This document shows positions 41,742 to 64,000 of a DNA stretch of 64,000 nt, piece by piece (position 1 is the stretch's first letter; each line of letters begins with the position of its first letter). Location of the stretch: positions 3,472,001 through 3,536,000 of the forward strand of contig NZ_CP080332.1 in NCBI RefSeq assembly GCF_019456655.1, given 5' to 3'. Made by a program: the position numbers and the translations under genes. Under the pieces are notes generated by a model. The model made no database searches. It was not told the DNA's origin and saw nothing but the letters and a program-made list of their open reading frames with translations. The stretch is from Mycolicibacterium diernhoferi (GTDB lineage Bacteria > Actinomycetota > Actinomycetes > Mycobacteriales > Mycobacteriaceae).

Positions 41742-41788
41742 TGGTCGGGCTGACAGGATTTGAACCTGCGACCACTTGACCCCCAGTG
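41742..41788 (-). other. tRNA-Pro 3' half: attachment site of the island
   Basis: On the minus strand this reads from the anticodon loop (ACTGGGGG) through the stem half TCAAG, variable loop, T-arm GCAGGTTCAAATCCTGT and acceptor strand to an encoded CCA. The 5' half of the tRNA (acceptor, D-arm, 5' anticodon stem) is missing: the sequence diverges exactly after the anticodon loop. GGG as anticodon is read from the partial loop. This is what is left at one junction when an element integrates into a tRNA gene and rebuilds the whole tRNA at its other end. Confidence 0.8.
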
Positions 41789-48231: not shown

Positions 48232-48636
48232 TCAGAAGCAGATTTCGCACTTCGAAGGCGACGTCCCCATATTCTTGATCGTCCAGTCCTCAAGTTCGTT
48301 GCGCCGTCTTGCGCACACCTTGACATAGTCGCCAACGAACACATCGCCCCGTGCGGGTTCACCGTTGATCGTGTGACACGTGGCCTGGTGCAGTATCAAG
48401 TAGTTCGTGTTGTAGGACTTCTCCATATTGAGGACGTAGCCACCCCGGTGGATTCTCACCCAGTCCCGATAGCCTTCATCGTCCCCGTCTCGGAACTCTG
48501 TCACGCCTTCGGGCTGTCGACGTGGGAGCAGTCGGGCGCATTCAGGGCACTCGCCGGTCGGGGTGAAATCGACCTCGTGCGCCGAGCAGCGCCGCACCCG
48601 GCGCGACTGCCGTTCGTTTCCGCCTTCGGCGATCAT
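48232..48636 (-). CDS. Hypothetical Cys-rich protein coupled to the resolvase
   Basis: A 134-residue protein with an N-terminal zinc-ribbon-like region (RCSAHEVDFTPTGECPECAR) and a core HRGGYVLNMEKSYNTNYLIL followed by HQATCHTINGEPARGDVFVG, ending SPSKCEICF. I do not recognise a function. Its ATG overlaps the stop of the resolvase gene (ATGA, 48633-48636), so both are made from one message; this suggests an accessory role for the recombinase or cotransfer with it. Confidence 0.65.
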   Translation of the reverse strand: MIAEGGNERQSRRVRRCSAHEVDFTPTGECPECARLLPRRQPEGVTEFRDGDDEGYRDWVRIHRGGYVLNMEKSYNTNYLILHQATCHTINGEPARGDVFVGDYVKVCARRRNELEDWTIKNMGTSPSKCEICF

Positions 48637-49418
48637 CGGTCAGCTACCTTTCGGTCGAGTTTAGTGAAGGCGACGGAACCCTTGCTGCTGGGGTACACGC
48701 CAGGTTCTTCGTGCGCGGAGGCCAGGTCTCGCATCCGCAGGGCCACCGATGTCGGTACTCGCTGCAGCTGCTCGGCCAACGCGATGATCGCGGGGTGTGC
48801 GGAACCGAGCACGCAGCCGTGCCGACGGTAGAGGTCATCGACTGCGATCACGTGCTCTTCTGTCCACGGGTTTGTGTTGTAAATAGTGGCCCGGCTGACG
48901 CCATACTCTGCGGCCAGTGCGGTTGCGGACTCCCCGGCGACGAGTCGGGACTTCACCTCGGCGATCTGCTCAGCAGTAAGGGAGGGCTTGCGCCCCTTGT
49001 AGACTCCCTTGGTCCTGGCGATGGCGATGCCCTCACGCTGGCGCTCAAGCAGCAGGCTGCGCTCAAACTCGGCCACCGCACCCATCACGCTAAGCATGAG
49101 CACCGCACAGGGGTCACTGGTGTCCCCGAACGTCAGCCCCTCCTTGACGAACCGGACGCGCACACCTTTGGCGGTGAATTCATCGACGGTCCGGCGGAGG
49201 TCGACCAGCGATCGGGCGAGGCGGTCCATGCTGTGCACGACGACTTCGTCGCCCTTGCGGACGTGTTTCATCATCGCCTGAAACTGGGGCCGGTTAGTGT
49301 CCTTGCCGCTGGCATGGTCGGTAAATACCTCGTCCAGCTCTATGCCGTCGAGCTGGCGGTCGGTGTTCTGGTCCATGGTGCTGACCCGTTGGTAGCCGAC
49401 CGTCTGACCCGTACCCAT
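48633..49418 (-). CDS. Serine recombinase (resolvase/invertase) with extended C terminus
   Basis: A 261-residue small serine recombinase. The catalytic domain is complete: VGYQRVSTMDQNTDRQLDG with the nucleophile Ser, VVVHSMDRLARSLVDL, and GAVAEFERSLLLERQREGIA. The usual DNA-binding helix-turn-helix follows (AAEYGVSRATIYNTNPW). About 75 further residues beyond it (DDLYRRHGCVLGSAHPAI...) are not part of the standard family. Inverted repeats lie immediately upstream, as expected for its own recombination site. It could resolve or mobilise part of the island. Confidence 0.88.
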   Translation of the reverse strand: MGTGQTVGYQRVSTMDQNTDRQLDGIELDEVFTDHASGKDTNRPQFQAMMKHVRKGDEVVVHSMDRLARSLVDLRRTVDEFTAKGVRVRFVKEGLTFGDTSDPCAVLMLSVMGAVAEFERSLLLERQREGIAIARTKGVYKGRKPSLTAEQIAEVKSRLVAGESATALAAEYGVSRATIYNTNPWTEEHVIAVDDLYRRHGCVLGSAHPAIIALAEQLQRVPTSVALRMRDLASAHEEPGVYPSSKGSVAFTKLDRKVADR

Positions 49419-50005: not shown

Positions 50006-53000
50006 TTAGGTGGCTGACCCGATGCTCACGACCTGGACAGCGCCAAAGTTGCCATCTACGAGGATGTAGACGTTCCCATTCGAGCTGGCCGCCAATCCTA
50101 CAAAGTTTGGGATGACATTGGCTGCGTTAACGACCGGCGCTTTCACGAGCAAGGTTTTCGTGGCGGTGTTGATCACGTTTAGGTTTTCGGTGAGGTCGAT
50201 TTCGTATAGGAGACTGCCATCAGGACTGAACGCCAAAGCTTTAGCGCCGTATGACGCGCTGGAAATGATGGTGGCGGTTGTGGTGTGTGTGGCAGTGTCG
50301 ATCGCAGTCACCCAGTTGGTGGCAATGTAGGCCGTTTTGCCGTCGGCGCTCACCACTACGTTCCCCAGATAGGTTACATCGCGGACCGCGAACGAACTGG
50401 TGACGGTGTTGGTCGCAGTATTGATCACCGACATGTAATTGGAGGACCAACTGGTGACGTACGCGCGGCTTCCGTTGGGGCTGAAAGCAACCCCGGCTGA
50501 AGCGTAGGTCATCGGGATGGTTGCCACGACGGTGTTGTAGGCGGCGCTTGTCGGATTGGTGTCGATGACCGAGATGCTGCCGCCGTCATCGCCGTTCGTG
50601 AAATACCCGCGGTTGCCGTCGGGGCTGATGGCGATGCTCCCGTTGCCGTTGATGCTATTGGCGACGGGGACGGCGGCAACGGTTCCCGTCGTGGTGTCGA
50701 CAACAGATACGTTCCATTTAGGCGCCTTGTTCGACGCGATGTAGAGGCGGCTGCCGTCGGGGGTGATCGCGAGTGCGCCCGAGTTGTCGACGGTATAGGT
50801 GGCGACGACGGTGTTGTAGGCGGCGCTGGTGGAGTCGGTGTTGATCACCGATACGGCGTGGCTGTAGGGGAAGCTCACGTAGAGGAGCTTCCCGTCCGGG
50901 CTGGCCACCACTCCGGATGGGTGAGCGCCAACCGGGATGGTCGTGACGGTGATCTTTCCCGGCGATACCGGGACGGTGACGGTTTCGGGTGTCGAGCCGG
51001 TGGCGTTGGTGGCAACCACAGTGAATACATCGCTGACCGAGTACGCGGGTCTCGATGTCAACCGGGCCGCGGCTGTCGGAGTGTAGGTGAATGTTCCGGC
51101 AGGGCTAACGGTCACCGATCCCCGAGTCGGGTTGCTAGTCACGGTGTAGGTCAAGGGTTCACCCGCAGGGTCGGTAAATCCCAGAGTGCCGGTCACCACA
51201 CCAGTGGCGGCGTTGGGTGTGCCTACGGTGGCTCCGCCCCTTGTGGGGGCGGTACCGGCGGGGGCGATGGCGACGGTCACGGTCTTGGTGGCCGTTCCGC
51301 CGAATCCGTCTGTGACGGTGACGGTGAACGTCTCCTGTTTGGCCGAAGCCGGTGCATTGGTCTTGGCTGCGGCGGCGCGGACCGCTGCTGTCGGGGTGTA
51401 GGTGAATTCCCCACCCGGCCCGAAGGTGATGGTGCCCTTCTTCGGCGTGGCTTTGAAGGTCAGGGCATCGCCGTCGGCATCGGTGGCTGCGAGTGTGCCG
51501 GTGACGGTTCCGGTGTTGAGATTCGGGTTGTTCACGGTGGGCGTGGCGGCCAGTGCGGGTGTCGTGTTCGCGGGGGCGATAGCGACCGTCACCAGCCTGG
51601 TGGTGGTGCCGCCGTGGCCGTCGGTGACGGTGACGGCGAAGCTGTCCTGCTTATCGGCAGAGGTGGCACCAACTTTCGCGGCAGCATGACGGGCGGCTGC
51701 GGTGGGCGTGTAAGTGAAGACACCCGTCGCGGTGTCGAGGGTCAACGAGCCCTTGGCCGCGGTGGGCATTCCGATGAGGCTGATGTAATCCTTGTCTGTA
51801 TCGGCGGCTTTCACGACGGCGGTAACAATCCCGGTGGACGCATTCGGCTTGCTCACTGTGGCGGTCAGATTCGGCGCGGTGTTCTTCGGCGCAACGCTCA
51901 CGGTGACCATGTGGGTCGCGGTGCCGCCATGACCGTCAGACACTGTCACGGTCACTATGTCCTTTGTGTCGGCATCGGTTGCCGTTACTGACGCTGCCGT
52001 ATGACGCGCTGCGGCAGTCGGGGTGTAGGTGAACGCCCCGGTCTTGGCGTTGATGCTGACTTTGCCCTTGGCGGTGTTGGCCGCGCTGTAGGTGAGTTTG
52101 TCCTTGTCTGCGTCGGCGGCGGTGACCTTGCCGGTCACGGCACCGGTCTTGGCGCTCGGTGTCCCCGCCGATCCGGTAAGCGCCACCGGGAGCACATTGG
52201 CCGGGGCAATGCCGACCGTGACCGCCTTGGACACCTTGCCGCCGTAGGCATCAGTGACGGTCACGGTGAACGTCTCCGAGGTCACCGACGCCTTGGCGCC
52301 AGGCACCGCTGCCGCATGACGAGCCGCTGCGGTTGGCGTGTAGGCGAAGGTTCCGTCAGCAGCGAACTGGATGCTGCCCTTTTTCGGGGTGGCCTTGAAC
52401 GACAGGGCGTCACCGTCGAGATCGTGAGCTCCCAAATTGCCTGTGACCGTTCCGGTCCCGGTGTCGGGCACGCCGACCGATGGCGTGGACGTCACCGTCG
52501 GTGTGCTGTTGGTCGGGGCGATGCTGACGGTGACGGTCTTTGTGGCGACTCCTCCATGTCCGTCTGTGACGGTCATCGTGAAGGTATCGGTCTTGGCCCC
52601 CGTACCGGCGCCGGTGGCAGCGGCGGCGTGGCGGGCCATGGCCGTGGGAGTGTAGATGAAAGCGCCGGTGGCAGCGTTAAGGGTAACCGCGCCTTTGCTT
52701 GTCGAGGCGGGGGCGCTGAAGGTCAGCGCATCCTTGTCAGCGTCACTGGCTTTCACCGTGCCGGTGACAACGCCGGTGGCAGCACTTGGTTTGCCCACCT
52801 TCACGGTGACGGCTGGTGCGGTGTTCTTCGGGGCGATGGGTACGTCGACGGTCTTGGTCAGCACCCCGCCGTGGCCGTCGGACACCGTGACCGTCACGGT
52901 GTCGGACTTTTCGGCAGCGGAGGCACCGTCCATAGCTGCGCTGTGACGCGCGGCAGCGGTGGGGGTATAGGTGAATGTCCCTTTGGAAGTGATCTTGACG

Positions 53001-54901
53001 GTGCCTTTGGTGGCCATCGCGGTGTACTTCAGGGTGTCTTTGTCGGCGTCGGTGACGCCGGTAATTGTTCCGGTGACCACCCCAGAGGTGGAGTTGGCAT
53101 TGATGCCCGTAACCGAACCGCCTGTGGGTGCTCGGTTGCCGGGGCTTGGCACCGCGATCACGGACACGGTGCCTGGGCCGGTGGCGTTGATTCCGGTGGC
53201 GTTCATTCCGGTGACGTAGATACGGGTGCCGTCAGGACTGACCGCAAGGGACTGCGGCTTAGACCCGACGGTGATTGGTACTCCAATCATGGCGTTGGTG
53301 GCGGTGTCGATCACCGACACGGTGCCTGCGCCGGTGGTGCGGTTGACAGAGGTGAAGTAAACGCGGGTGTTGTCAGGACTGACCGCCACATCCACCAGGT
53401 AAGCAGCCGACGCGCCGACTAATGGCGCGGAGTAGATGACGGTGTTGCGGTGGGTCACGGTATCGATCACCGACACGGAGTAGTAATTGGTCGCGTAAAC
53501 GCGGGTTCCGTCGGGACTAACCGCTAAACCACTTGGAATACCACCGATGGTGATAGGTGAGCCGATGACCTTATTGGTGCCGGTGTCGATCACCGTTACG
53601 GTGCCGCCGCCACCCTGGGTGTTGAGGTAAACCCGTTTGCCATCGGGACTGACCGCCACATCCTCCGGCCAAGATTCGACATATGTCCCTGAACCGATGA
53701 TCTTGTTCGTGGCGGTGTCCATTACCGACAAAGTGCTGTAGTTCCGGGAGGTGACATAGACACGTTTGCCGTCCGGACTGACTGCGACGTCATGCTGCTG
53801 AGACGCGATGTCGGTCCTTGCACCTGCGATGACCGCGTTGGTCGCGGTGTTGATCACCGCTACAGTCCCCCCGGCGCTATTGGCGACGTAAACACGTTTG
53901 CCGTCGGGACTAACTGCCAGCCCGATCGGGTGAGACCCAACCACCACATTGGTGGGGTAAGACCCGACAGGTATCGGTTCGCCGACTGTGGTGTTGGTGA
54001 TGGCGTTGATCACCGATACGGTGCCGTCATAGTTGGCGACGTAGACACGTTTTCCGTCCGGACTGACCACTACACCCCGCGGCATACTCCCGACAGTGAT
54101 CGTGGCGATCAACGTCGGGTCGGTGGTGCCTGCATCCGCACCCGGGGCGGCTCCCGCGCCAACCGAACCCAAGGCGGTCGCGGCCAAGGCTTGCCCAGTG
54201 AAATCGCGCGCAGCAGGCGCGCCCGCTCCCGCATCGGTATCCCCGACCTGACGCCGCGCTGCAGCCAACAACACCCACTCCGCAGGCGACTGCACCGGCA
54301 CATCGGTCCCCGGCGCTACCGACGGCGCAGCCAAAGCAGCCACCACCTCGCCCTTCGCGACTCCCGTGGACGCAGACACCTCAGGAACCGGATCGGGCGC
54401 AACAACCTGAGTAGAGACCGAGCTAACCGGGGCGACGACGCTCTCCGTCGCGGTGCTGGCTGACGGTTCGGGGTTCGGCGTGGAGTCCTCGGTGCGCTCT
54501 TGGTCGGTGCTGGGCGTCGGCCTGGGGGAAGGTGATTCGGTCGTCGTGGACGTGGCAGCGGCCTTACGCCCGGGCTTGCGCTTGGGTGCCCGCTCTATCG
54601 TGGTCAAGTAAGAGCCCGGCGTCTTTACCGTGGACTCTTTCGGTTCCGGCTCCATTGCTGGCCCCGACGGAGTCGTCGCCGACTCTGGGTCGTTGGCCGC
54701 CGCGTCTGGTGTCGACGTACCTTCGGAGGCCGCGTCGGTCGACCCCACTGCCGAACTTGGCGAAGATGACGACGAAGAAGTCGAGGACGAAGCGTCGGCA
54801 TCGCCGGACTCAGCCCACGCTGGCACTGCAGCGACCGCCGATCCGATCCCCAGCGCTACCGCCAACGCCCCGACACGACCGACGTACCTGCCTGAACCCA
54901 C
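50006..54901 (-). CDS. Giant secreted protein: beta-propeller, seven Ig-like repeats, beta-propeller
   Basis: A 1631-residue exported protein. The signal region GRVGALAVALGIGSAVAAVP ends near residue 31, followed by a Ser/Thr/Pro-rich linker to about 255. A first YVTN-type propeller (about 260-585) repeats the phrase VSPDGKRVYVAN / VSVINTATN. Seven cadherin/VCBS-like repeats of about 95 residues follow (about 590-1275), each with FTYTPTAAARHAAA and VTVTDGHGG. A second propeller closes the protein to 1631 with SPDGSRLYIAS-like blades. GTG 54901 has AAGGGAG upstream and gives the right signal length. No LPxTG or membrane helix is seen. Adhesion or matrix binding is inferred from the fold. Confidence 0.88.
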   Translation of the reverse strand: MGSGRYVGRVGALAVALGIGSAVAAVPAWAESGDADASSSTSSSSSSPSSAVGSTDAASEGTSTPDAAANDPESATTPSGPAMEPEPKESTVKTPGSYLTTIERAPKRKPGRKAAATSTTTESPSPRPTPSTDQERTEDSTPNPEPSASTATESVVAPVSSVSTQVVAPDPVPEVSASTGVAKGEVVAALAAPSVAPGTDVPVQSPAEWVLLAAARRQVGDTDAGAGAPAARDFTGQALAATALGSVGAGAAPGADAGTTDPTLIATITVGSMPRGVVVSPDGKRVYVANYDGTVSVINAITNTTVGEPIPVGSYPTNVVVGSHPIGLAVSPDGKRVYVANSAGGTVAVINTATNAVIAGARTDIASQQHDVAVSPDGKRVYVTSRNYSTLSVMDTATNKIIGSGTYVESWPEDVAVSPDGKRVYLNTQGGGGTVTVIDTGTNKVIGSPITIGGIPSGLAVSPDGTRVYATNYYSVSVIDTVTHRNTVIYSAPLVGASAAYLVDVAVSPDNTRVYFTSVNRTTGAGTVSVIDTATNAMIGVPITVGSKPQSLAVSPDGTRIYVTGMNATGINATGPGTVSVIAVPSPGNRAPTGGSVTGINANSTSGVVTGTITGVTDADKDTLKYTAMATKGTVKITSKGTFTYTPTAAARHSAAMDGASAAEKSDTVTVTVSDGHGGVLTKTVDVPIAPKNTAPAVTVKVGKPSAATGVVTGTVKASDADKDALTFSAPASTSKGAVTLNAATGAFIYTPTAMARHAAAATGAGTGAKTDTFTMTVTDGHGGVATKTVTVSIAPTNSTPTVTSTPSVGVPDTGTGTVTGNLGAHDLDGDALSFKATPKKGSIQFAADGTFAYTPTAAARHAAAVPGAKASVTSETFTVTVTDAYGGKVSKAVTVGIAPANVLPVALTGSAGTPSAKTGAVTGKVTAADADKDKLTYSAANTAKGKVSINAKTGAFTYTPTAAARHTAASVTATDADTKDIVTVTVSDGHGGTATHMVTVSVAPKNTAPNLTATVSKPNASTGIVTAVVKAADTDKDYISLIGMPTAAKGSLTLDTATGVFTYTPTAAARHAAAKVGATSADKQDSFAVTVTDGHGGTTTRLVTVAIAPANTTPALAATPTVNNPNLNTGTVTGTLAATDADGDALTFKATPKKGTITFGPGGEFTYTPTAAVRAAAAKTNAPASAKQETFTVTVTDGFGGTATKTVTVAIAPAGTAPTRGGATVGTPNAATGVVTGTLGFTDPAGEPLTYTVTSNPTRGSVTVSPAGTFTYTPTAAARLTSRPAYSVSDVFTVVATNATGSTPETVTVPVSPGKITVTTIPVGAHPSGVVASPDGKLLYVSFPYSHAVSVINTDSTSAAYNTVVATYTVDNSGALAITPDGSRLYIASNKAPKWNVSVVDTTTGTVAAVPVANSINGNGSIAISPDGNRGYFTNGDDGGSISVIDTNPTSAAYNTVVATIPMTYASAGVAFSPNGSRAYVTSWSSNYMSVINTATNTVTSSFAVRDVTYLGNVVVSADGKTAYIATNWVTAIDTATHTTTATIISSASYGAKALAFSPDGSLLYEIDLTENLNVINTATKTLLVKAPVVNAANVIPNFVGLAASSNGNVYILVDGNFGAVQVVSIGSAT
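50950..53150 (-). repeat. Seven tandem Ig-like domain repeats in DNA
   Basis: The Ig-like part of the giant gene consists of seven units of about 290 bases. Units share the codons for TPTAAARHAAA and TVTDGHGG but differ elsewhere, so they diverged after duplication rather than being a recent expansion. The last (seventh) unit is the most divergent, lacking the GHGG turn. Confidence 0.75.
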
Positions 54902-55438
54902 TACCGCTCCCTTGCTGTGTCCACTGACCACACAACTCGTGCGCTGTGGAATCGCTGTGCGAGTTATAGCAAACAATTAACGCTCGCGTCGGGGCATCAG
55001 GAGTGTTACCCGGAGAGTTCACCCGAACGGTGCACACGCCACTGCACCACGAGCCGCTTCAACTTCGACTTCTTCGACAATCAATCAAGACGCTCGAACT
55101 CACGCCTAAGCAGCGTTAGGTGTGAGACCAGACTGCGAGACCCTCGTATGTCATCGTTTTTGACACCCTCAATGCACCTCATCACGCTCGTCTCGCATGA
55201 GTGCATTGGATCTGGGCGCGAAGCCAGAGCCCGTTTCGTCCACCGACGGGAAAGAATCTCCGGCTACCGCAGCGGAACTCCCCCAACGTTCTCGAGTGTG
55301 GGGCTCTGGCCGAATGGACGCCGTTGCCAGCCGGTCGACCAAGCGGAGTTGTTAGTTAACCGTCGCACCAACCGATCGCAAGACCGCCGTAAACCTTCGG
55401 TCATAGCGTTGTTTCTTGGCGCCCTTAGCATCGTGTCG
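54902..55438. other. Intergenic region with two hairpins
   Basis: No gene is supported in these 537 bases. CTCACGCCTAA (55099-55109) pairs with TTAGGTGTGAG (55116-55126) with one mismatch and a six-base loop. CAATGCAC + CTCAT (55170-55182) pairs with ATGAG/GTGCATTG (55197-55208) with a one-base bulge. They could be terminator, regulatory or recombination structures between the giant gene (leftward) and the helix-turn-helix array (rightward). Confidence 0.5.
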
Positions 55439-58033: not shown

Positions 58034-58495
58034 CTAACGGTTCCGGCGATTTAACACTGGTGCGGCATCGAGGATCGCGGAGAACTCCCGGGCAGAAAGT
58101 CGATCGATCTCGAACTCGGCAGCCTTCTCTCGCACGGCGTCGTCGTCGGAGACAACTACCCAGGTGGGACCGAATAGCTTGTCGTCATTCTGACTTCGAG
58201 CCTCCAGCGCGCATGCCACGATGAGCGGATCGGCGCCACCGCGGTTCGCATAGAGATCGACGAGCTTGGTGTCAGCTACCGGCACCGTCTTCATAACAAC
58301 AAGTAGTTGTCGGAGGACTGCATCAGTTGTCTCGTACCTGCAGTCTCTAAGTTCATCGATGTCCGGGAACCCTCTGGCCTCATAGAGCACCTCATCGGGA
58401 ATGTGGCAGAAAGAGCGGAAAAACTCGCTCGCCCGTTGATCCCGCGACAGGGTAGACAACACGTTGTTGTCCACCAGGTACTGGTAGTCGGTCAA
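58034..58495 (-). CDS. PIN-like nuclease (DUF4411-like)
   Basis: A 153-residue protein with PIN-domain acidic residues in order: QYLVDNNVLSTL (Asp), EVLYEARG (Glu), GGADPLIVACALEA (Asp) and WVVVSDDDAVRE (Asp). PIN domains are usually RNases in toxin-antitoxin modules. Its ATG overlaps the stop of the upstream gene (58492-58495), an ImmA/IrrE-like protein. The combination resembles the DUF4411 + ImmA pairs seen in many bacteria. Base composition is lower in GC than the core. Assignment as toxin is inferred. Confidence 0.75.
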   Translation of the reverse strand: MTDYQYLVDNNVLSTLSRDQRASEFFRSFCHIPDEVLYEARGFPDIDELRDCRYETTDAVLRQLLVVMKTVPVADTKLVDLYANRGGADPLIVACALEARSQNDDKLFGPTWVVVSDDDAVREKAAEFEIDRLSAREFSAILDAAPVLNRRNR

Positions 58496-59658
58496 TGCAG
58501 TGCCGCTCGAAATTCATCGATCTGTGACGGCTTGATGTGGTTCAGGCACACGGACCGACAAAAATCTCTCGGTGATAGCTTTCCCGACTCGAGTGCCGCG
58601 AGCATCCGAACCGAGAACTCACGGCCGTTGTACTTCCGAATGGCGTTGACGAGGAGCGGCGACCGCAAGGTGGGCTTGGCCTGACGCGCATATTCCTGCG
58701 CTAGTGTATCAAGGTAAATCTTGGCGATGTCACCACCAAAGATGTTGAGTCGCATGGCTCTAACGGTCATTGCGCTCGCGGTTACTTTAAACTGGTCGGA
58801 CAGGGCCTTCACATCGTCCAGCGATGCGATGCGCTGCCCCCGGAGATGTTCAGCGGGTATCAGGATCTCACCGACGATGTCATGTTCCCGGACGATGTCT
58901 TGACCAACACTACTTCCGTCGTATGTGACTGGAGCAAAGATTCTGCGCGCGACGAGAACCGCGAGGAGCGTCAGGGTGAAGATCCGGCGCCCGCCAGGCT
59001 CCTGATTGTCACCCGGATCTCCGCCCCTGAGGAAGACGTAGGGAACCTTATTGTCCTTGACAGTCATGCCGCTGAACTTGACTTGCAGCCTCTGCGGCAT
59101 GACAGGGCTGGAGCTTTGGGAGACGAGGATCTGGTTCGCCTCCAGACGAGTGATGAGGTAGGCCAGCGCCGCGTCTCTGTTCGCAGCGGACCGCATAGCC
59201 TCATGCGTGACCCCGAGTGCACGCATCAATTTGTCGGCGTCCGCCTCGACAGACTTGCCGGGCTTTCCCAGCAAGCCGATGATTCGGTTCTTGGTCAACG
59301 ACGCATCATGCACCTTGACCAACTCCTGCTTACGCAGGAGGTCCTTCACGATGAGCTCGACATCGCGCAGGTCAACTTTGTCGCGAGAGTTTATCGAGAA
59401 CGTGGGCTTGGTCAGGCCCGCCAACAGCTTGTCGGCCTTCGCCGAGATCTGTGCTTGCACCACTGGAAGTGGCGCAAAGAACAGCGCGTGCGGAATCTCC
59501 CCACGTCGAGCTAGGAATACAAGATCACTGAACGCGATCGCACCTTCAGCGAGCGCCCTTTCATAAGCGACGTAATGGCTGGATACCGAATTTTCCAACA
59601 ACGCCGTGAACACAGAGCGGTCTATCGGTATCCGGGTGCCACTTATAAGCAAGTCCAC
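58492..59658 (-). CDS. ImmA/IrrE-like protein lacking the HExxH zinc motif
   Basis: A 388-residue protein. Residues 1-190 are helical (SSHYVAYERALAEGAIAFSD). Residues 190-310 follow the ImmA/IrrE metallopeptidase pattern: PYVFLRGGDPGDNQEPGGRR, IFTLTLLAVLVARRIF, then EILIPAEHLR and DQFKVTASAMTVRAMRLNIF. Canonical members read IFTLAHELAH at this point; here no His or Glu is present, so the zinc site is lost and it should be inactive as a protease. The first gene of a coupled pair with the PIN-like nuclease. Start at GTG 59658 or 59664, both behind GGGAGG. Confidence 0.65.
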   Translation of the reverse strand: MDLLISGTRIPIDRSVFTALLENSVSSHYVAYERALAEGAIAFSDLVFLARRGEIPHALFFAPLPVVQAQISAKADKLLAGLTKPTFSINSRDKVDLRDVELIVKDLLRKQELVKVHDASLTKNRIIGLLGKPGKSVEADADKLMRALGVTHEAMRSAANRDAALAYLITRLEANQILVSQSSSPVMPQRLQVKFSGMTVKDNKVPYVFLRGGDPGDNQEPGGRRIFTLTLLAVLVARRIFAPVTYDGSSVGQDIVREHDIVGEILIPAEHLRGQRIASLDDVKALSDQFKVTASAMTVRAMRLNIFGGDIAKIYLDTLAQEYARQAKPTLRSPLLVNAIRKYNGREFSVRMLAALESGKLSPRDFCRSVCLNHIKPSQIDEFRAALH

Positions 59659-60094
59659 ACTCACAATCCTCCCGGCCCGCGGGCACGACCCACATGTCGC
59701 GATGTTTCCATAAAACAGTGCTCCGCGGGTGTTGTGCTGTCGACCACGGCGCGCTGCCAATCGGCAAGCCTGGTGACCCGCACATACGTCCCAACCGGCT
59801 CTCCAGTACACCTACCCGTTCAGGCGCCCCAGGGACGCAGCTTCACTGTAAAGAAGTAAGCACGGAGACTGATGGTCGATCCGCCCCGGAATGAGACGAG
59901 CAAAAGATTTGCATAAACCCCTCTCGCGTCGATGCTGCACCACGACGAAGGTGCTTTCAGCCTCGTGGCTGATAGCACCTTCGTCGCTTCTGAGCTAGCT
60001 CCGAGGATGAGAAGCTGTGTTCACCGGTCTTCCGACGACGTGGCCGCCATGTTGAAATTGCCCCGCTACCTCCGTGCCCTGCATGCGAACCCGT
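59659..60094. other. Intergenic region containing a long hairpin
   Basis: No gene is supported in these 436 bases between the PIN/ImmA-like pair and the HNH nuclease gene. The main feature is the long stem-loop at 59943-59986, entered separately. Confidence 0.5.
59943..59986. terminator. Long stem-loop downstream of the ATPase-HNH genes
   Basis: CGACGAAGGTGCT (59943-59955) is a perfect inverted repeat of AGCACCTTCGTCG (59974-59986). Inside it TCAGCC pairs with GGCTGA around a TCGT loop, with one T-T mismatch between the two stems. It lies about 110 bases after the HNH stop. A terminator for that operon is likely; no T-run follows. Confidence 0.7.
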
Positions 60095-60934
60095 CTACCA
60101 GTCTGGGCCTACACATATCTGAGCCTGATACCAATCGTCCAACGCCAGAGCCTCATACATAACTCCTCGTCGATCATTTATGTCGGCGCTAAACTGAATA
60201 TCCGCGGTCTCTGCAAGAAACTTCGTTAACTGGCTAACGTCGGTATACAGCGTTGGCAGTCGCTCATTCAGGCTGGTCAGCTCAACAGTCGAAACGACAG
60301 AATAGAGCTCCCCCAGCTTCAAGTCATCGAACTGACGACGAAGGCGGTCTGCATATTGCGAGTCCAAATCACCGGGTGGATCTGCGACAAAGGCGACTGA
60401 TGGTGGAGACGTGTGAGTGATGGTGGCGTACAGCCAACGTCCAAGATCAGGCATGAAGTAGGGATGCAGCATTTCATGCCCGGGGTCGTCACTCCATTTG
60501 GCACCCATTCCATGATTACAGCGACTGCAGCACGGAATTAGATTCCACGGCTCGATGGCGAGCGATGGGACAAAGTCTTTCGGCATAAAATGGTCCAGCG
60601 CTGAGGCTTCGCCGTACTGGCAATACGTACACAGGCCATGCTGCGCGCCTGCAATCAACTTGTCGTAGATTCGCCTACCCGCCACTGTACGAACAAGGCG
60701 GTTTCGGTAGAGCTTTTTCATGTCTTCGTCAGAAAGATTTGGCACCGGATAGTGCCCAGGCCCAGTTAGGTGCAACGTCGAACTGGCGGCATGCTTTCGA
60801 TACGTCTCGCAGTTCGCCTCCAGTGCGGAGATTGCGGCGCGTACGTTGGTCCTGATCCGCTCATCGTCGTGACGGTCCACGCACGCTTTCGCGGTTTCCG
60901 CAGTCGTAACAGTCGGTTGATCAGCGGCCCGCAT
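60095..60934 (-). CDS. HNH endonuclease, Septu PtuB-like
   Basis: A 279-residue HNH nuclease. The zinc/HNH core lies at residues 102-145: CTYCQYGEASALDHFMPKD (Cys pair and the catalytic Asp-His), then PWNLIPCCSRCNHGMG with the second Cys pair and Asn. N-terminal and C-terminal flanks are helical. The gene overlaps the end of an ATPase gene by 14 bases. An overlapping AAA ATPase + HNH pair is the plan of the Septu (PtuA/PtuB) anti-phage system. ATG 60934 is chosen; an earlier in-frame start at 60955 would lie deeper in the ATPase gene. Confidence 0.82.
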   Translation of the reverse strand: MRAADQPTVTTAETAKACVDRHDDERIRTNVRAAISALEANCETYRKHAASSTLHLTGPGHYPVPNLSDEDMKKLYRNRLVRTVAGRRIYDKLIAGAQHGLCTYCQYGEASALDHFMPKDFVPSLAIEPWNLIPCCSRCNHGMGAKWSDDPGHEMLHPYFMPDLGRWLYATITHTSPPSVAFVADPPGDLDSQYADRLRRQFDDLKLGELYSVVSTVELTSLNERLPTLYTDVSQLTKFLAETADIQFSADINDRRGVMYEALALDDWYQAQICVGPDW

Positions 60935-62528
60935 CACGCTGCTTCGCGGTTGCAATAATCATGGCACGCAGGATGGCCCGCCCCTCCGCTCCTAACTGAC
61001 CCTCGAACATGTTCAGGGCCTGGTCGTAATCCCCCGTATCGAGTGCCGCCTGTTTGAGCATCTCGTGGAAGCCTGTTGAAATCACCTCTAATCCGAAAAC
61101 CTCGTCGGTCAGAGTCCCCACGTTCTCCCCGAATGTTTCGATCCGAGGTTGGCTTGCTGACAATACGTCGCCTGATCGATGAAGCTTCCACACGCAGGAG
61201 CTAGGCACCTCCTGCAGCACCACGGGCGAATGCGTAGCGACAATCGCTATGCCATTGCGATTAGTCAAGAGATCGCTCAGCGCACGGAGGAACGAGGACA
61301 GCAATGGTGGATGCAAGTGCGCTTCAGGTTCGTCAAGAAGAACAAGGCTCTTCTCCACAACAGTTTCTACCAATTTTGTAACTGTTAATAGAACGATCTT
61401 ATGCCCTGAACTTAGCTTTCTGAATATCTTTGGCAGGCGTTCGAGGACATCTTCCACATCACCTTCTTCAATCAGGTTTCTTATGCCTGTCGCTTCGAAA
61501 ATCAAGTCAGTTTCGAGCAATCCAAGGGCCCTGACAAGGCGTGCGCGTCGAGCATCGAACTGCAGGCAGCTCTTGACGGACATGGTCATCTCCCGGGAGA
61601 GCTGTCCGTGGTCCTTCGTTCTCAGCACGGGTGAGTCTTCAGTTGCCTTCGCGCCCACTTTTTTTAGACCAACATAGTGGTAAGTCAACCCCTTGGTGCG
61701 ATCTCGCGGAACACTGATCGGTTCAAACGAGTCAAAGGCACTAAACGACACGGAAACGACGTTGGATAGTTGTTGCCATTGTTGGGCAACACTGTCATCC
61801 GCGAAAGGATCATGCGAGTTATTGACAATCGACCTTGCGATCCCGTTGAGTGTTGTGCTCTTGCCAACGCCGTTACGCCCAATAAGTACATGAATGTTAC
61901 TGGGTGGGCGACTATGGGGCGTCACAGAAAACGTAAGCGTACATGGATCCTGAGACTGCTTTCCAAGTGAAAATTCAAACTGGTAAGGCGTCAAACGCGC
62001 CTCGCCGCGAGCAAGCCGATGAAACTGTTCTTGAACCGATCTCAATGGGACTTCACGGAGCAGGGAGATCGCTGTTACTGGTTCTTCCTGGGCTCGTATT
62101 CTTAATTCTTCGTCAAGGGCAATGTCCCTCATCGCGACAAGGTATTCCTGCCGGAACTGGGCTCCTATTGCGGTCAGATTTTCGTAGTAGGTTGTGTCCT
62201 GCCCAAGAGAAAAGAATTTCCCCCCGAGGCGCTGAAACGTTTGCGGAAGATTAGGTCGTCGATATCCCGTTCGTCGCTCGTCACGATCGCCAGGCTCAAG
62301 TCCCACCTCACCGATCTTGACTGATCCAATCGGAAATTCATTGCCATCGGCATCAATGAACCGGACGTAGTATGTGGTTTCAAATTTGAACCAGTCATCC
62401 CATTCCGTCGGCGACAGCACGATGACGTTGCGATCGCTCTTATCGGCGTACAAGCGCCTGACGCGAAATCGCAAAGTACGCTCCTTCTCAATGGCTAAAC
62501 TGCTTTCCGACTGCCGCGAACGGCCCAA
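60921..62528 (-). CDS. AAA/ABC-type ATPase, Septu PtuA-like
   Basis: A 535-residue RecF/SMC-type ATPase: Walker A GRNGVGKST (217-225), signature LSSGHK (372-377), Walker B LVLLDEPEAHLHP (395-407), H-loop ATHSP (431-435). It carries an unusual N-terminal domain of about 200 residues (RRLYADKSDRNVIVLSPTEW, VRFIDADGNEFPIGSVKIGE), which ordinary short PtuA proteins would not have. Such ATPases sense phage infection and license the HNH partner. It starts with TTG 62528 behind GGAAG. The pair plus an upstream DUF6602 gene on the same strand suggests a defence operon. Confidence 0.82.
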   Translation of the reverse strand: MGRSRQSESSLAIEKERTLRFRVRRLYADKSDRNVIVLSPTEWDDWFKFETTYYVRFIDADGNEFPIGSVKIGEVGLEPGDRDERRTGYRRPNLPQTFQRLGGKFFSLGQDTTYYENLTAIGAQFRQEYLVAMRDIALDEELRIRAQEEPVTAISLLREVPLRSVQEQFHRLARGEARLTPYQFEFSLGKQSQDPCTLTFSVTPHSRPPSNIHVLIGRNGVGKSTTLNGIARSIVNNSHDPFADDSVAQQWQQLSNVVSVSFSAFDSFEPISVPRDRTKGLTYHYVGLKKVGAKATEDSPVLRTKDHGQLSREMTMSVKSCLQFDARRARLVRALGLLETDLIFEATGIRNLIEEGDVEDVLERLPKIFRKLSSGHKIVLLTVTKLVETVVEKSLVLLDEPEAHLHPPLLSSFLRALSDLLTNRNGIAIVATHSPVVLQEVPSSCVWKLHRSGDVLSASQPRIETFGENVGTLTDEVFGLEVISTGFHEMLKQAALDTGDYDQALNMFEGQLGAEGRAILRAMIIATAKQRDAGR

Positions 62529-62605
62529 AGCTAGCTTCCGTCACTAATCTAGCTGGTCGGCGAGCTCCAGTTAGGGGCCCCCAACGACGTGGGTTCCTCG
62601 CGCAA

Positions 62606-62746
62606 CTAACGACTGATCAGTTCAGCCAGCTCGGCCGCAAACTTCTCGGTCGATGAATATCGGATTCGACACGCAGAACGCCGCCCGTACCGGCACAGGT
62701 CCCAACCCAGGACTAGTTCGGCATGCCGACCCGTACTGAGGTCTGA
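62606..62746 (-). other. 41-codon in-frame continuation after the DUF6602 stop
   Basis: Directly after the TGA at 62747-62749, in the same frame, the sequence reads GRHAELVLGWDLCRYGRRSA, then STEKFAAELAELISR to TAG 62606-62608. It has no start codon of its own. It may be the former C terminus of the DUF6602 protein behind a nonsense mutation, a readthrough product, or chance. Confidence 0.35.
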
Positions 62747-63655
62747 TCAGGCGTTGAGTTCAAATCTGGCTGAATCCTCGAAGATTTGCAACATAAGCTC
62801 GTGCGAGATAAGGCCGTCCATCGGACGTCCGAGTCCTGCACCGGAAGTAGTGCCAGCCGTCCGGGTCCTGTGAAGCCCATGAGCTATTGGGTCAAGTTCA
62901 GGGTCGCGCGCGGCCAGCTTCGCCCAGAGCGCCGTGACTAGCGAAGCCACAGGCACTGCGTGCGTTGCCTCGGGGCTACCGCTCGTTCCCATCCAGAGGT
63001 CGACGTAAGATTCCGCGGAAGCGGTTCGCGAAGCGGTCCCCTCACGAGTCCAGCAATCGACGTCTGCGATGCACACGATGTCGAGCATTTCCCGTGGGTG
63101 AACGCCAGAATCCTCGGCAGACGTCTGTAACAGGTCAAGCGTCTTCTCACCGGCCGAGCGTCTCAATTGGTGCGTATTAGCTAGGACCCCATACACCAAA
63201 GGTGAACGCAGTTCTCCAATCACCTTCCCGTGGCGTATTCCAATACCGCGACGAACCCTCCTCGCCTCTTCGATAGCCGCTCGAAGGTCAGACACTTTCA
63301 ACTGGCCCTTCACACTAAAAGCAGCCACAACCCCCGATACCAGGACTTCACTACGTTCACGTAACTGTTTCGGATAGGCCGGATGGAACACCACCAAGTC
63401 GACTTCGGACGAGTAGATCGAACCGTCTACAGGTTCCTCTAGTACGAGATACTTGCGTGTTCCGATCTCGTAGTGCGGAGGCAGCCACCCTTGTAAAAAC
63501 CGACGCCACAAGGATTCATAAATGTGGCCGCGAAGCTGTCTGTGCCTGGACTGCTCATTTTTGGTTGAGCCAGTGAGGGCTGACCGGACATTTCGGTACT
63601 CACGCTCGATATCGTCGCTGACGGCACTCAGCCAACTATGGTGAGGGTGCTGCAT
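62747..63655 (-). CDS. DUF6602 nuclease-like protein
   Basis: A protein of about 302 residues that fits the DUF6602 family: VSDDIEREYRNVRSALTGST, RGHIYESLWRRFLQGWLPPH, YEIGTRKYLV, then SEVDLVVFHPAY and AAFSVKGQLKVSDLRAAIEE. The spacing of Glu/Asp (EVD) and x-V-K is that of a PD-(D/E)xK nuclease core, though the usual E-x-K is S-V-K here. DUF6602 is found in defence contexts as far as I recall. It lies upstream of the ATPase/HNH pair on the same strand, with a gap of about 220 bases. ATG 63655 is assumed; the frame opens at 63721. Confidence 0.65.
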   Translation of the reverse strand: MQHPHHSWLSAVSDDIEREYRNVRSALTGSTKNEQSRHRQLRGHIYESLWRRFLQGWLPPHYEIGTRKYLVLEEPVDGSIYSSEVDLVVFHPAYPKQLRERSEVLVSGVVAAFSVKGQLKVSDLRAAIEEARRVRRGIGIRHGKVIGELRSPLVYGVLANTHQLRRSAGEKTLDLLQTSAEDSGVHPREMLDIVCIADVDCWTREGTASRTASAESYVDLWMGTSGSPEATHAVPVASLVTALWAKLAARDPELDPIAHGLHRTRTAGTTSGAGLGRPMDGLISHELMLQIFEDSARFELNA

Positions 63656-63772
63656 GACCAATTGTCCCAGTTTGGTCAACCGCTTGGCCCCCGAATGATG
63701 TGAACATTTTTCGGGACCCAATCTAGTTCACTCTGCAGGTCCCACCATGCCCCACTCAATACACCTTCCAGT

Positions 63773-64000
63773 CTAAACGGCAGAATCGAATGCGCCCGCG
63801 TTTGCTTCGTCGGTCGCCTGATACAGGGCTGCGCTCCGTCGAAAGCTGATCGCGATCTCGTCGAGTCTTCCAGCACGGGCAGCATCGGTACGCTCCCATG
63901 TCTCGCGTAGCTGTTCGAATGCGCCGAACGCGGTCCCGACCCATCCTGACTGGGCCTCCACGAGGGCTTCGGCGTTCCTGGCGAGCTGATCCCGAGCCGA
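63773..64000 (-). CDS. Type VII secretion substrate-like protein, WXG100/EspC type (partial)
   Basis: The C-terminal 75 residues of a protein that continues beyond the right edge. It shows a W-x-G turn (EAQSGWVGTAFGAFEQLRET) between two helices, and the end ISFRRSAALYQATDEANA, as in ESX-type WXG100 or EspC-like substrates of mycobacteria. Such proteins are small helical hairpins exported by type VII systems. Stop TAG at 63773-63775. It could be a core gene, which would mean the island ends nearby, or part of the island. Confidence 0.7.
   Translation of the reverse strand, partial: SARDQLARNAEALVEAQSGWVGTAFGAFEQLRETWERTDAARAGRLDEIAISFRRSAALYQATDEANAGAFDSAV

What the first reader, a model, noticed from the sequence alone, without database searches (positions are those of the whole stretch)
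60095..63655. Septu-like ATPase/HNH pair with an added N-terminal domain and a DUF6602 nuclease-like gene
The overlapping ATPase and HNH genes fit Septu. Two features are not standard: about 200 residues ahead of the ATPase P-loop that I do not recognise, and an upstream same-strand DUF6602 protein with PD-(D/E)xK-like residues. Together they may form a three-gene Septu variant with two nucleases.
Basis: partly seen in the sequence, partly recalled or inferred. Interest (0 to 1): 0.7.

Follow-up and report, generated by a model that had tools for sequence, protein, structure and literature searches.

The report
Septu-like defence pair, lambda Ea59 kin
Two overlapping genes form a widespread two-part, Septu-like anti-phage candidate that phage lambda also carries (ea59-ea31), while the third gene beside them is most likely a passenger with a changed active site, so this is a new member of a known kind.

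Summary
The three genes are real. The ATPase (60921-62474) and HNH gene (60095-60934) overlap by 14 nt and match PADLOC's candidate pair PDC-M01A/B over nearly their full length (633 and 385 bits). Phage lambda Ea59-Ea31 match the same families (E 3.9e-201 and 5.8e-113). The "added" N-terminal region, about 175 aa, has no usable Pfam or PDB match, but it is normal for the family: 128 of 131 other ATPase loci have it, lambda included. Of 126 such loci with at least 600 bp downstream, 126 carry the HNH gene there. DUF6602 lies in the flanks of 1 of 131 (Caballeronia; other side, 26% identical); the window's two nearest relatives in the tree lack it. DUF6602 is NucC-like (E 1.5e-28), but the window copy has Ser for the catalytic Glu. 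The three-gene, two-nuclease variant is therefore not supported, though not excluded. The genes sit in a 33.3-kb integrative element in tRNA-Pro; two relatives show the empty site. New member of a known kind; the lambda link makes it testable.

The parts
60921..62474 (-). Septu-like AAA/ABC ATPase, PDC-M01A family, lambda Ea59 homolog (517 aa from the likely TTG start)
   Evidence: PADLOC PDLC04235 633 bits over 28-529 (P0002 numbering) and PtuA model PDLC00282 582 bits; AAGGAG then TTG start; Walker A, SSGH signature, DEPEAHLHPP and THSP motifs conserved in A2
61950..62474 (-). N-terminal domain of the ATPase (175 aa), found in most of the family, no known fold
   Evidence: A4: 39 rows including lambda Ea59, invariant W25 D27 G50 G91 Y97 D117 L138 R140; present in 128 of 131 other ATPase loci; no usable Pfam or PDB match
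60095..60934 (-). HNH endonuclease, PDC-M01B family, lambda Ea31 homolog (279 aa)
   Evidence: PADLOC PDLC04262 385 bits; C102 C105 D114 H115 N131 C136 C139 H157 invariant in 25 rows
62747..63655 (-). DUF6602, NucC-like PD-(D/E)xK-type protein with Ser in place of the motif Glu; probably a passenger
   Evidence: PF20247 E 1.8e-17; family profile against PDB NucC E 1.5e-28; SxK motif
62475..62746 (.). 272-bp gap between DUF6602 and the ATPase start
58492..59811 (-). P0004, distant relative of an HTH + ImmA/IrrE-type protein, downstream neighbour; not part of the pair
   Evidence: BLAST E 2.9e-9 to an ORF in L178, which carries Peptidase_M78/IrrE and weak HTH matches; P0004 itself has no Pfam hit
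58034..58495 (-). P0005, small PIN-like protein behind P0004, a possible toxin-antitoxin pair
   Evidence: PF13638 E 0.042, below cut-off; 4-nt overlap with P0004
41744..41787 (.). Left 44-bp direct repeat of the integrative element; the right copy lies outside the window at 75016-75059 = 3' end of tRNA-Pro(ggg)
   Evidence: exact 44-bp repeat; tRNA at L003 17016-17090; empty site in two relatives

Best explanation
The locus is a two-gene, Septu-like defence candidate of the PDC-M01 / lambda Ea59-Ea31 type, carried as cargo on a tRNA-integrated mobile element. The DUF6602 gene upstream is most likely a separate passenger. Likely mechanism (inferred from PtuAB): the ABC-type ATPase assembles with and holds the HNH protein in check; the N-terminal domain shared by most of the family is the best candidate for the part that senses infection or sets specificity; on infection the HNH nuclease cuts a nucleic acid (DNA or a tRNA) and the infected cell stops growing before phage is released. 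Shown here: homology, gene order, intact ATPase and HNH motifs, the conserved N-terminal domain and the mobile setting. Inferred: complex formation, trigger, substrate and protection.
For: PADLOC full-length matches for both proteins. HNH gene directly behind the ATPase in 126 of 126 non-window loci with room. ATPase and HNH motifs intact. Lambda Ea59-Ea31 match the same PADLOC families with the same gene order in a lambda-sized record. The ATPase profile reaches retron PtuA structures (9kjx, E 7.5e-11, C-terminal part only). Found on viral contigs, plasmids and genome contigs of many phyla. In published Septu Ec-B88, Walker A/B and H-N-H substitutions abolish defence (PMC13096335, passages). 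DUF6602 in the flanks of 1 of 131 other ATPase loci.
Against: In the searches I ran (listings and some passages) I saw no test of defence by a member of this subfamily; Bacillus Septu systems tested in the literature were not compared. NCBIfam PtuA and PtuB models score far below their cut-offs (52.5 of 500; 21.5 of 150 bits). The HNH profile reaches PtuB structures only at E 0.16, weaker than its matches to other HNH proteins (3.4e-5). The architecture differs from canonical PtuA. No structure prediction could be run. DUF6602 is linked once more, in L110, so a functional link in a minority is not excluded.
Confidence: 0.78

Rival explanations
1. A true three-gene Septu variant in which the NucC-like DUF6602 protein acts with the ATPase/HNH pair as a second nuclease, or, having lost the catalytic Glu, as a DNA-binding regulator.
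For: Same strand, directly upstream. A second lineage (Caballeronia, L110) has a DUF6602 gene directly downstream of the HNH gene on the same strand. Chance adjacency from the DUF6602 density in the order is about 7e-5 per 10 kb, taking 5.5 Mb per genome.
Against: 1 of 131 other loci; absent beside the two nearest relatives in the tree, L031 and L086; 272-bp gap here; opposite side and 26% identity in L110; two separate origins on the tree; DUF6602 occurs without the pair in 11 of the 12 genomes of the order that hold it.
Confidence: 0.08
2. The pair is a phage accessory module for something other than immunity, for example DNA processing by temperate phages, as its presence next to int in lambda might suggest.
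For: Next to the integrase gene in a lambda-sized record, on 49 viral-contig loci and, here, on an integrative element; lambda ea59 and ea31 are scored non-essential in a CRISPRi screen (PMC10695390, table passage).
Against: Also on plasmids (58 records) and on genome contigs; apart from the HNH gene no neighbour gene family recurs in more than 6 of 131 loci; related to PtuAB, whose members defend (PMC13096335, PMC11555353, passages).
Confidence: 0.14

Closest known systems
Phage lambda Ea59-Ea31
   Same: Same two genes in the same order, same ATPase and HNH families; 37% identity over 98% of the ATPase and 24% for the HNH protein; the N-terminal domain is shared.
   Different: No DUF6602 found in the flanks of the lambda-sized record (L035). 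No role in immunity seen in print (searches; listings).
PADLOC candidate system PDC-M01 (PDC-M01A, PDC-M01B)
   Same: Both proteins match nearly full length: 633 and 385 bits.
   Different: No difference found. PDC-M01 is a computed candidate; the two papers found that name it report it as a PADLOC prediction, and in one of them 41 duplicate calls carried both the names Septu and PDC-M01 (PMC11811056 and PMC11758030, passages).
Septu (PtuAB)
   Same: ABC-type ATPase followed by an HNH nuclease; one PADLOC PtuA model matches full length, 582 bits; profile match to solved PtuA in the C-terminal ATPase part.
   Different: Walker A Lys at residue 205 here versus K43 in Septu Ec-B88 (PMC13096335, passage): the N-terminal domain is extra; NCBIfam PtuA/PtuB cut-offs not reached.
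Retron Ec78 / type I-A (Septu type II)
   Same: Homologs of the PtuA/PtuB effectors.
   Different: No reverse transcriptase among the 15 ORFs scanned, and the gene before the ATPase is DUF6602.
NucC (CBASS / type III CRISPR effector nuclease)
   Same: The DUF6602 family profile matches NucC structures at E 1.5e-28; D and K of the motif kept.
   Different: Motif Glu is Ser in the window copy; no SMODS nucleotidyltransferase found in the genome.

Membership tests
PADLOC PDC-M01 | ATPase matches PDC-M01A over most of its length | tested here: met
   PDLC04235, E 1.1e-190, profile 12-507 of 510
PADLOC PDC-M01 | Second protein matches PDC-M01B | tested here: met
   PDLC04262, E 5.8e-116, profile 2-256 of 259
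PADLOC PDC-M01 | The two genes adjacent on one strand (rule assumed; PADLOC's own rule file was not seen) | tested here: met
   14-nt overlap; HNH next in 126 of 126 relatives with room
Septu (PtuAB) | ABC ATPase motifs (Walker A, Walker B) intact | tested here: met
   their need for defence in a Septu system: PMC13096335 passage
Septu (PtuAB) | HNH nuclease motif intact in the second protein | tested here: met
   C102 C105 D114 H115 N131 C136 C139 H157
Septu (PtuAB) | NCBIfam PtuA and PtuB equivalog cut-offs | tested here: not met
   52.5 of 500 bits and 21.5 of 150 bits; those models describe the retron Ec78 proteins
Septu (PtuAB) | Canonical PtuA layout with the P-loop near the N-terminus | tested here: not met
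   Walker A Lys at residue 205 from the likely start, against K43 in Septu Ec-B88; only that one Septu protein was compared for this
Septu (PtuAB) | PtuA-PtuB oligomer and anti-phage activity | not testable with these tools
   needs protein and phage work
Retron type I-A | Reverse transcriptase gene before ptuA | tested here: not met
   the preceding gene is DUF6602; no RT among the 15 ORFs scanned; msr-msd RNA not searched
NucC | Sequence homology to NucC | tested here: met
   family profile A3 against PDB 7zgv E 1.5e-28; single protein against 6uxf E 0.0039
NucC | D ... E-x-K active site | tested here: not met
   D108 and K138 present, E replaced by S136
NucC | A cyclase that makes cyclic trinucleotide, nearby or in the genome | tested here: inconclusive
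   none among the 15 ORFs scanned; SMODS family 0 of 1 in the own genome; other cyclase families and Cas10 not searched
NucC | Activation by cA3, DNA cleavage | not testable with these tools
   needs biochemistry
Three-gene Septu/DUF6602 system | DUF6602 recurrently next to the pair | tested here: not met
   1 of 131 other loci; whole-genome Pfam search: 4 of 48 ATPase genomes hold DUF6602, 1 adjacent

The most novel reading that the evidence does not exclude
Ea59/Ea31-type systems are a separate Septu-related clade defined by a sensor domain of a new fold. In a few lineages, this one included, they have captured a NucC-like DUF6602 protein; in the actinobacterial SxK branch it has lost its own catalysis and now serves as a DNA- or second-messenger-binding regulator of the HNH nuclease.
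Probability: 0.06. Interest if true: 0.7.

Novelty: new member of a known kind. Interest (0 to 1): 0.33.

Why it matters
The finding itself is ordinary: a further PDC-M01/Septu-like pair. Its use is the link to lambda: ea59 and ea31, long-known accessory genes of the best-studied phage, belong to the same candidate defence family. No paper in the searched library holds both ea59 and septu, so a computed candidate becomes testable at once in standard laboratory strains. The N-terminal domain shared by most of the family, without a usable Pfam or PDB match, is a defined target for structure work. The report also closes a probable false lead: DUF6602 is not a recurrent part of the system in the loci examined.

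Tried and rejected
Three-gene system: rejected as the main reading on co-occurrence. Order-level overlap of the two families is no more than chance (8 and 12 of 298, overlap 1; P of at least one 0.28).

DUF6602 as CBASS-like effector: no SMODS cyclase in the genome; only that one cyclase family was searched.

A different conserved third gene: neighbour clustering over 131 loci (3 kb up, 4 kb down) gave no family in more than 6 loci besides the HNH gene. The top group, in 6 loci, looks integrase-like by eye; no family scan was run on it. A large gene upstream on the same strand recurs in 5 loci; of the four scanned, L033 has a weak HATPase match below cut-off, L099 a weak DUF6826 match below cut-off, L075 and L084 none. 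DUF3732 recurs in 3.

N-terminal domain identity: profile search of PDB (best hit a protein A chain at E 0.0071, judged spurious) and Pfam scan of 39 members (six single-member hits at E 0.031-0.091) gave nothing usable. Its fold is untested.

Promoter scan of 60000-64000 found no sigma-70-like site (0 found, shuffles mean 2.1); uninformative in a high-GC actinobacterium.

Limits of the counts: one search used the 182 loci held. Of these 155 had an ATPase ORF at E 1e-30 or better; 22 duplicates with the same C-terminal segment and 2 copies of the window were dropped, leaving 131. Flanks held per locus vary, from about 1.4 kb or less to 8 kb; 94 of the 131 have at least 2.5 kb upstream and 3.5 kb downstream. 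Loci of the class search (L195-L205) were not added. My DUF6602 profile, itself partly built from them, found 11 of the 12 Pfam hits of the order (missed L029, a broken copy). In one search, 50 loci were given and 48 genomes searched, of the 80 genome loci. A2 was chosen from long ATPase ORFs; in the count the N-terminal domain is missing from 3 of 131: L008 and L016 (short ORFs) and L180 (divergent).
Full report
OBSERVATION. Comparison with relatives and the ribosome-binding site refine the starts. The ATPase begins at the TTG at 62474 behind AAGGAG; most relatives begin at the same place. The HNH gene begins at 60934 and DUF6602 at 63655. ATPase and HNH overlap by 14 nt; DUF6602 ends 272 bp before the ATPase. 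The genes are less GC-rich (0.52-0.57) than the stretch of the window left of the element (0.678).

THE PAIR. The ATPase matches PADLOC PDC-M01A at 633 bits and a PtuA model at 582 bits, both over nearly the full protein, and the HNH protein matches PDC-M01B at 385 bits. The NCBIfam PtuA and PtuB models score far below cut-off. A profile of 65 rows (window and 64 homologs) reaches retron PtuA structures at E 7.5e-11, in the C-terminal ATPase part. The HNH profile matches other HNH proteins best (E 3.4e-5) and retron PtuB at E 0.16. Walker A, SSGH signature, Walker B and THSP motifs are conserved, and the HNH alignment of 25 rows has eleven invariant columns, among them C-x-x-C, DH, N and C-x-x-C. 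Across 131 non-window, non-duplicate ATPase loci, 126 have at least 600 bp downstream and all 126 carry the HNH gene there; the other five end within 135 bp at the end of the stretch held.

LAMBDA. tblastn against annotated phages returned lambda ea59 at 37% identity over 98% of the query (NC_001416 and others). A lambda-sized record filed as a plasmid shows integrase, ATPase and HNH genes in a row. PADLOC scores its ATPase against PDC-M01A at E 3.9e-201 and its HNH protein against PDC-M01B at 5.8e-113. A library search for ea59 together with septu found no paper; ea31 with HNH found two, both on Cas9 by title and abstract (listing). In a CRISPRi screen both lambda genes are scored non-essential (PMC10695390, table passage).

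N-TERMINAL DOMAIN. The 175 residues before the ATPase core carry eight invariant columns in 39 diverse rows, lambda included. A profile of them matches the ATPase ORF of 128 of 131 other loci; the three without are two short ORFs (L008, L016) and one divergent protein (L180); no ORF other than the ATPase carries it in the loci examined. Pfam gave only six single-member hits at E 0.03-0.09 and PDB no convincing chain. It is therefore a domain unknown to these libraries but not an addition made in this genome. Canonical Septu Ec-B88 has its Walker A Lys at 43 (PMC13096335, passage); here it is at 205. Sensing or specificity is an inference.

DUF6602. A 14-row family profile finds NucC structures at E 1.5e-28 to 8.6e-24, so DUF6602 is NucC-like with a PD-(D/E)xK-type core. 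Of 21 informative, non-duplicate rows, 5 have Ser at the motif Glu (window, L027, L028, L034 and L184, the last also with Arg for Lys), 1 has Gln and 15 have Glu. The window's copy is thus in a branch that has lost the residue; whether it still cuts DNA is not known.

LINKAGE. My DUF6602 profile found a member in the flanks of 1 of 131 other ATPase loci: L110, Caballeronia, directly behind the HNH gene; 94 of the 131 have at least 2.5 kb upstream and 3.5 kb downstream. The two DUF6602 proteins are 26% identical over 98 residues. Pfam's own model over the whole genomes of 48 ATPase loci found DUF6602 in 4; only the L110 one is adjacent. The other three do not lie on the ATPase contig: G299 and G321 by position beyond its length, G323 by a different contig length. 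In the order, 8 of 298 genomes hold the ATPase (E 1e-10 or better) and 12 of 298 DUF6602; only the own genome holds both. In the class it is 10 and 4 of 394 with the ATPase profile and with P0001, again only the own genome. The tree of 68 ATPases puts the window next to an Arthrobacter plasmid and Nocardia L086, neither with DUF6602 in its flanks, and L110 elsewhere; starred branches force two separate origins (the bootstrap had not settled, root at midpoint). DUF6602 elsewhere sits alone or with varied neighbours on plasmids, for example beside an Abi gene. Against this, adjacency by pure chance is unlikely (about 7e-5 per 10 kb if genomes average 5.5 Mb), so L110 deserves mention; clustering of accessory genes in islands is the likelier cause.

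SETTING. GC falls from about 0.65-0.70 to 0.60 near 41-43 kb. An exact 44-bp repeat at 41744-41787 and 75016-75059 is the 3' end of tRNA-Pro(ggg), next to a tyrosine integrase. Two relatives (G729, G726) have the flanks joined without the element: a 33.3-kb integrative element. The third relative, G713, has an integrase-like stretch of its own (66%) beside the same tRNA.

MECHANISM. By analogy with PtuAB: in Septu Ec-B88 both the ATPase and HNH motifs are needed and the growth of infected cells is impaired; in retron-Eco7 PtuAB depletes tRNA-Tyr; [quoted passage not shown] Which substrate is cut here is unknown. I put 0.78 on a two-gene defence-type module with DUF6602 as passenger.

NOVELTY. 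New member of a known kind. PADLOC already lists the pair as a candidate, and in one study 41 duplicate calls bore both the names Septu and PDC-M01 (PMC11811056, passages). In the passages seen, the first PADLOC paper describes an RT-linked Septu variant and an Hma operon often near Septu, none with DUF6602 (PMC8565338); no paper in the library holds the word DUF6602.

Noticed in passing
window 41744-64000 and on to 75059 (right end outside the window): 33.3-kb integrative element in tRNA-Pro(ggg) with 44-bp direct repeats, an integrase and a resolvase (Pfam) and a second resolvase-like ORF by eye (48633-49418); empty site in two relatives.
   Followed up: partly
L033, L075, L084, L099, L113: A large gene upstream of the ATPase on the same strand recurs in 5 of 131 loci from different phyla (L113 only an 81-aa piece, L084 cut by the contig end); L033 has a weak HATPase match below cut-off. 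A possible real three-gene variant.
   Followed up: partly
L063, L100, L125: DUF3732 protein (Rad50-like by recall) upstream of the pair on the same strand in 3 of 131 loci.
   Followed up: no
window 58034-59811: P0004/P0005: ImmA/IrrE-like protein with a small PIN-like partner, possibly a toxin-antitoxin pair; a P0004 relative also sits near the ATPase in viral contig L178.
   Followed up: partly
L027, L028, L034, L184 and window 62747-63655: DUF6602 branch with Ser for the catalytic Glu; in the Mycobacterium copy L184 the Lys is Arg as well.
   Followed up: partly
window 50006-54976: 1656-aa repetitive ORF with beta-propeller-like and tandem VCBS-like repeats inside the element; naming by eye.
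   Followed up: no
plasmid collection hits H23-H26, H30: Records filed as plasmids of Stenotrophomonas, Paenibacillus, Salmonella and E. coli have about lambda length (48.4-48.5 kb) and a match like lambda ea59; only H25 was looked at. Probably lambda or sequencing-control DNA.
   Followed up: partly
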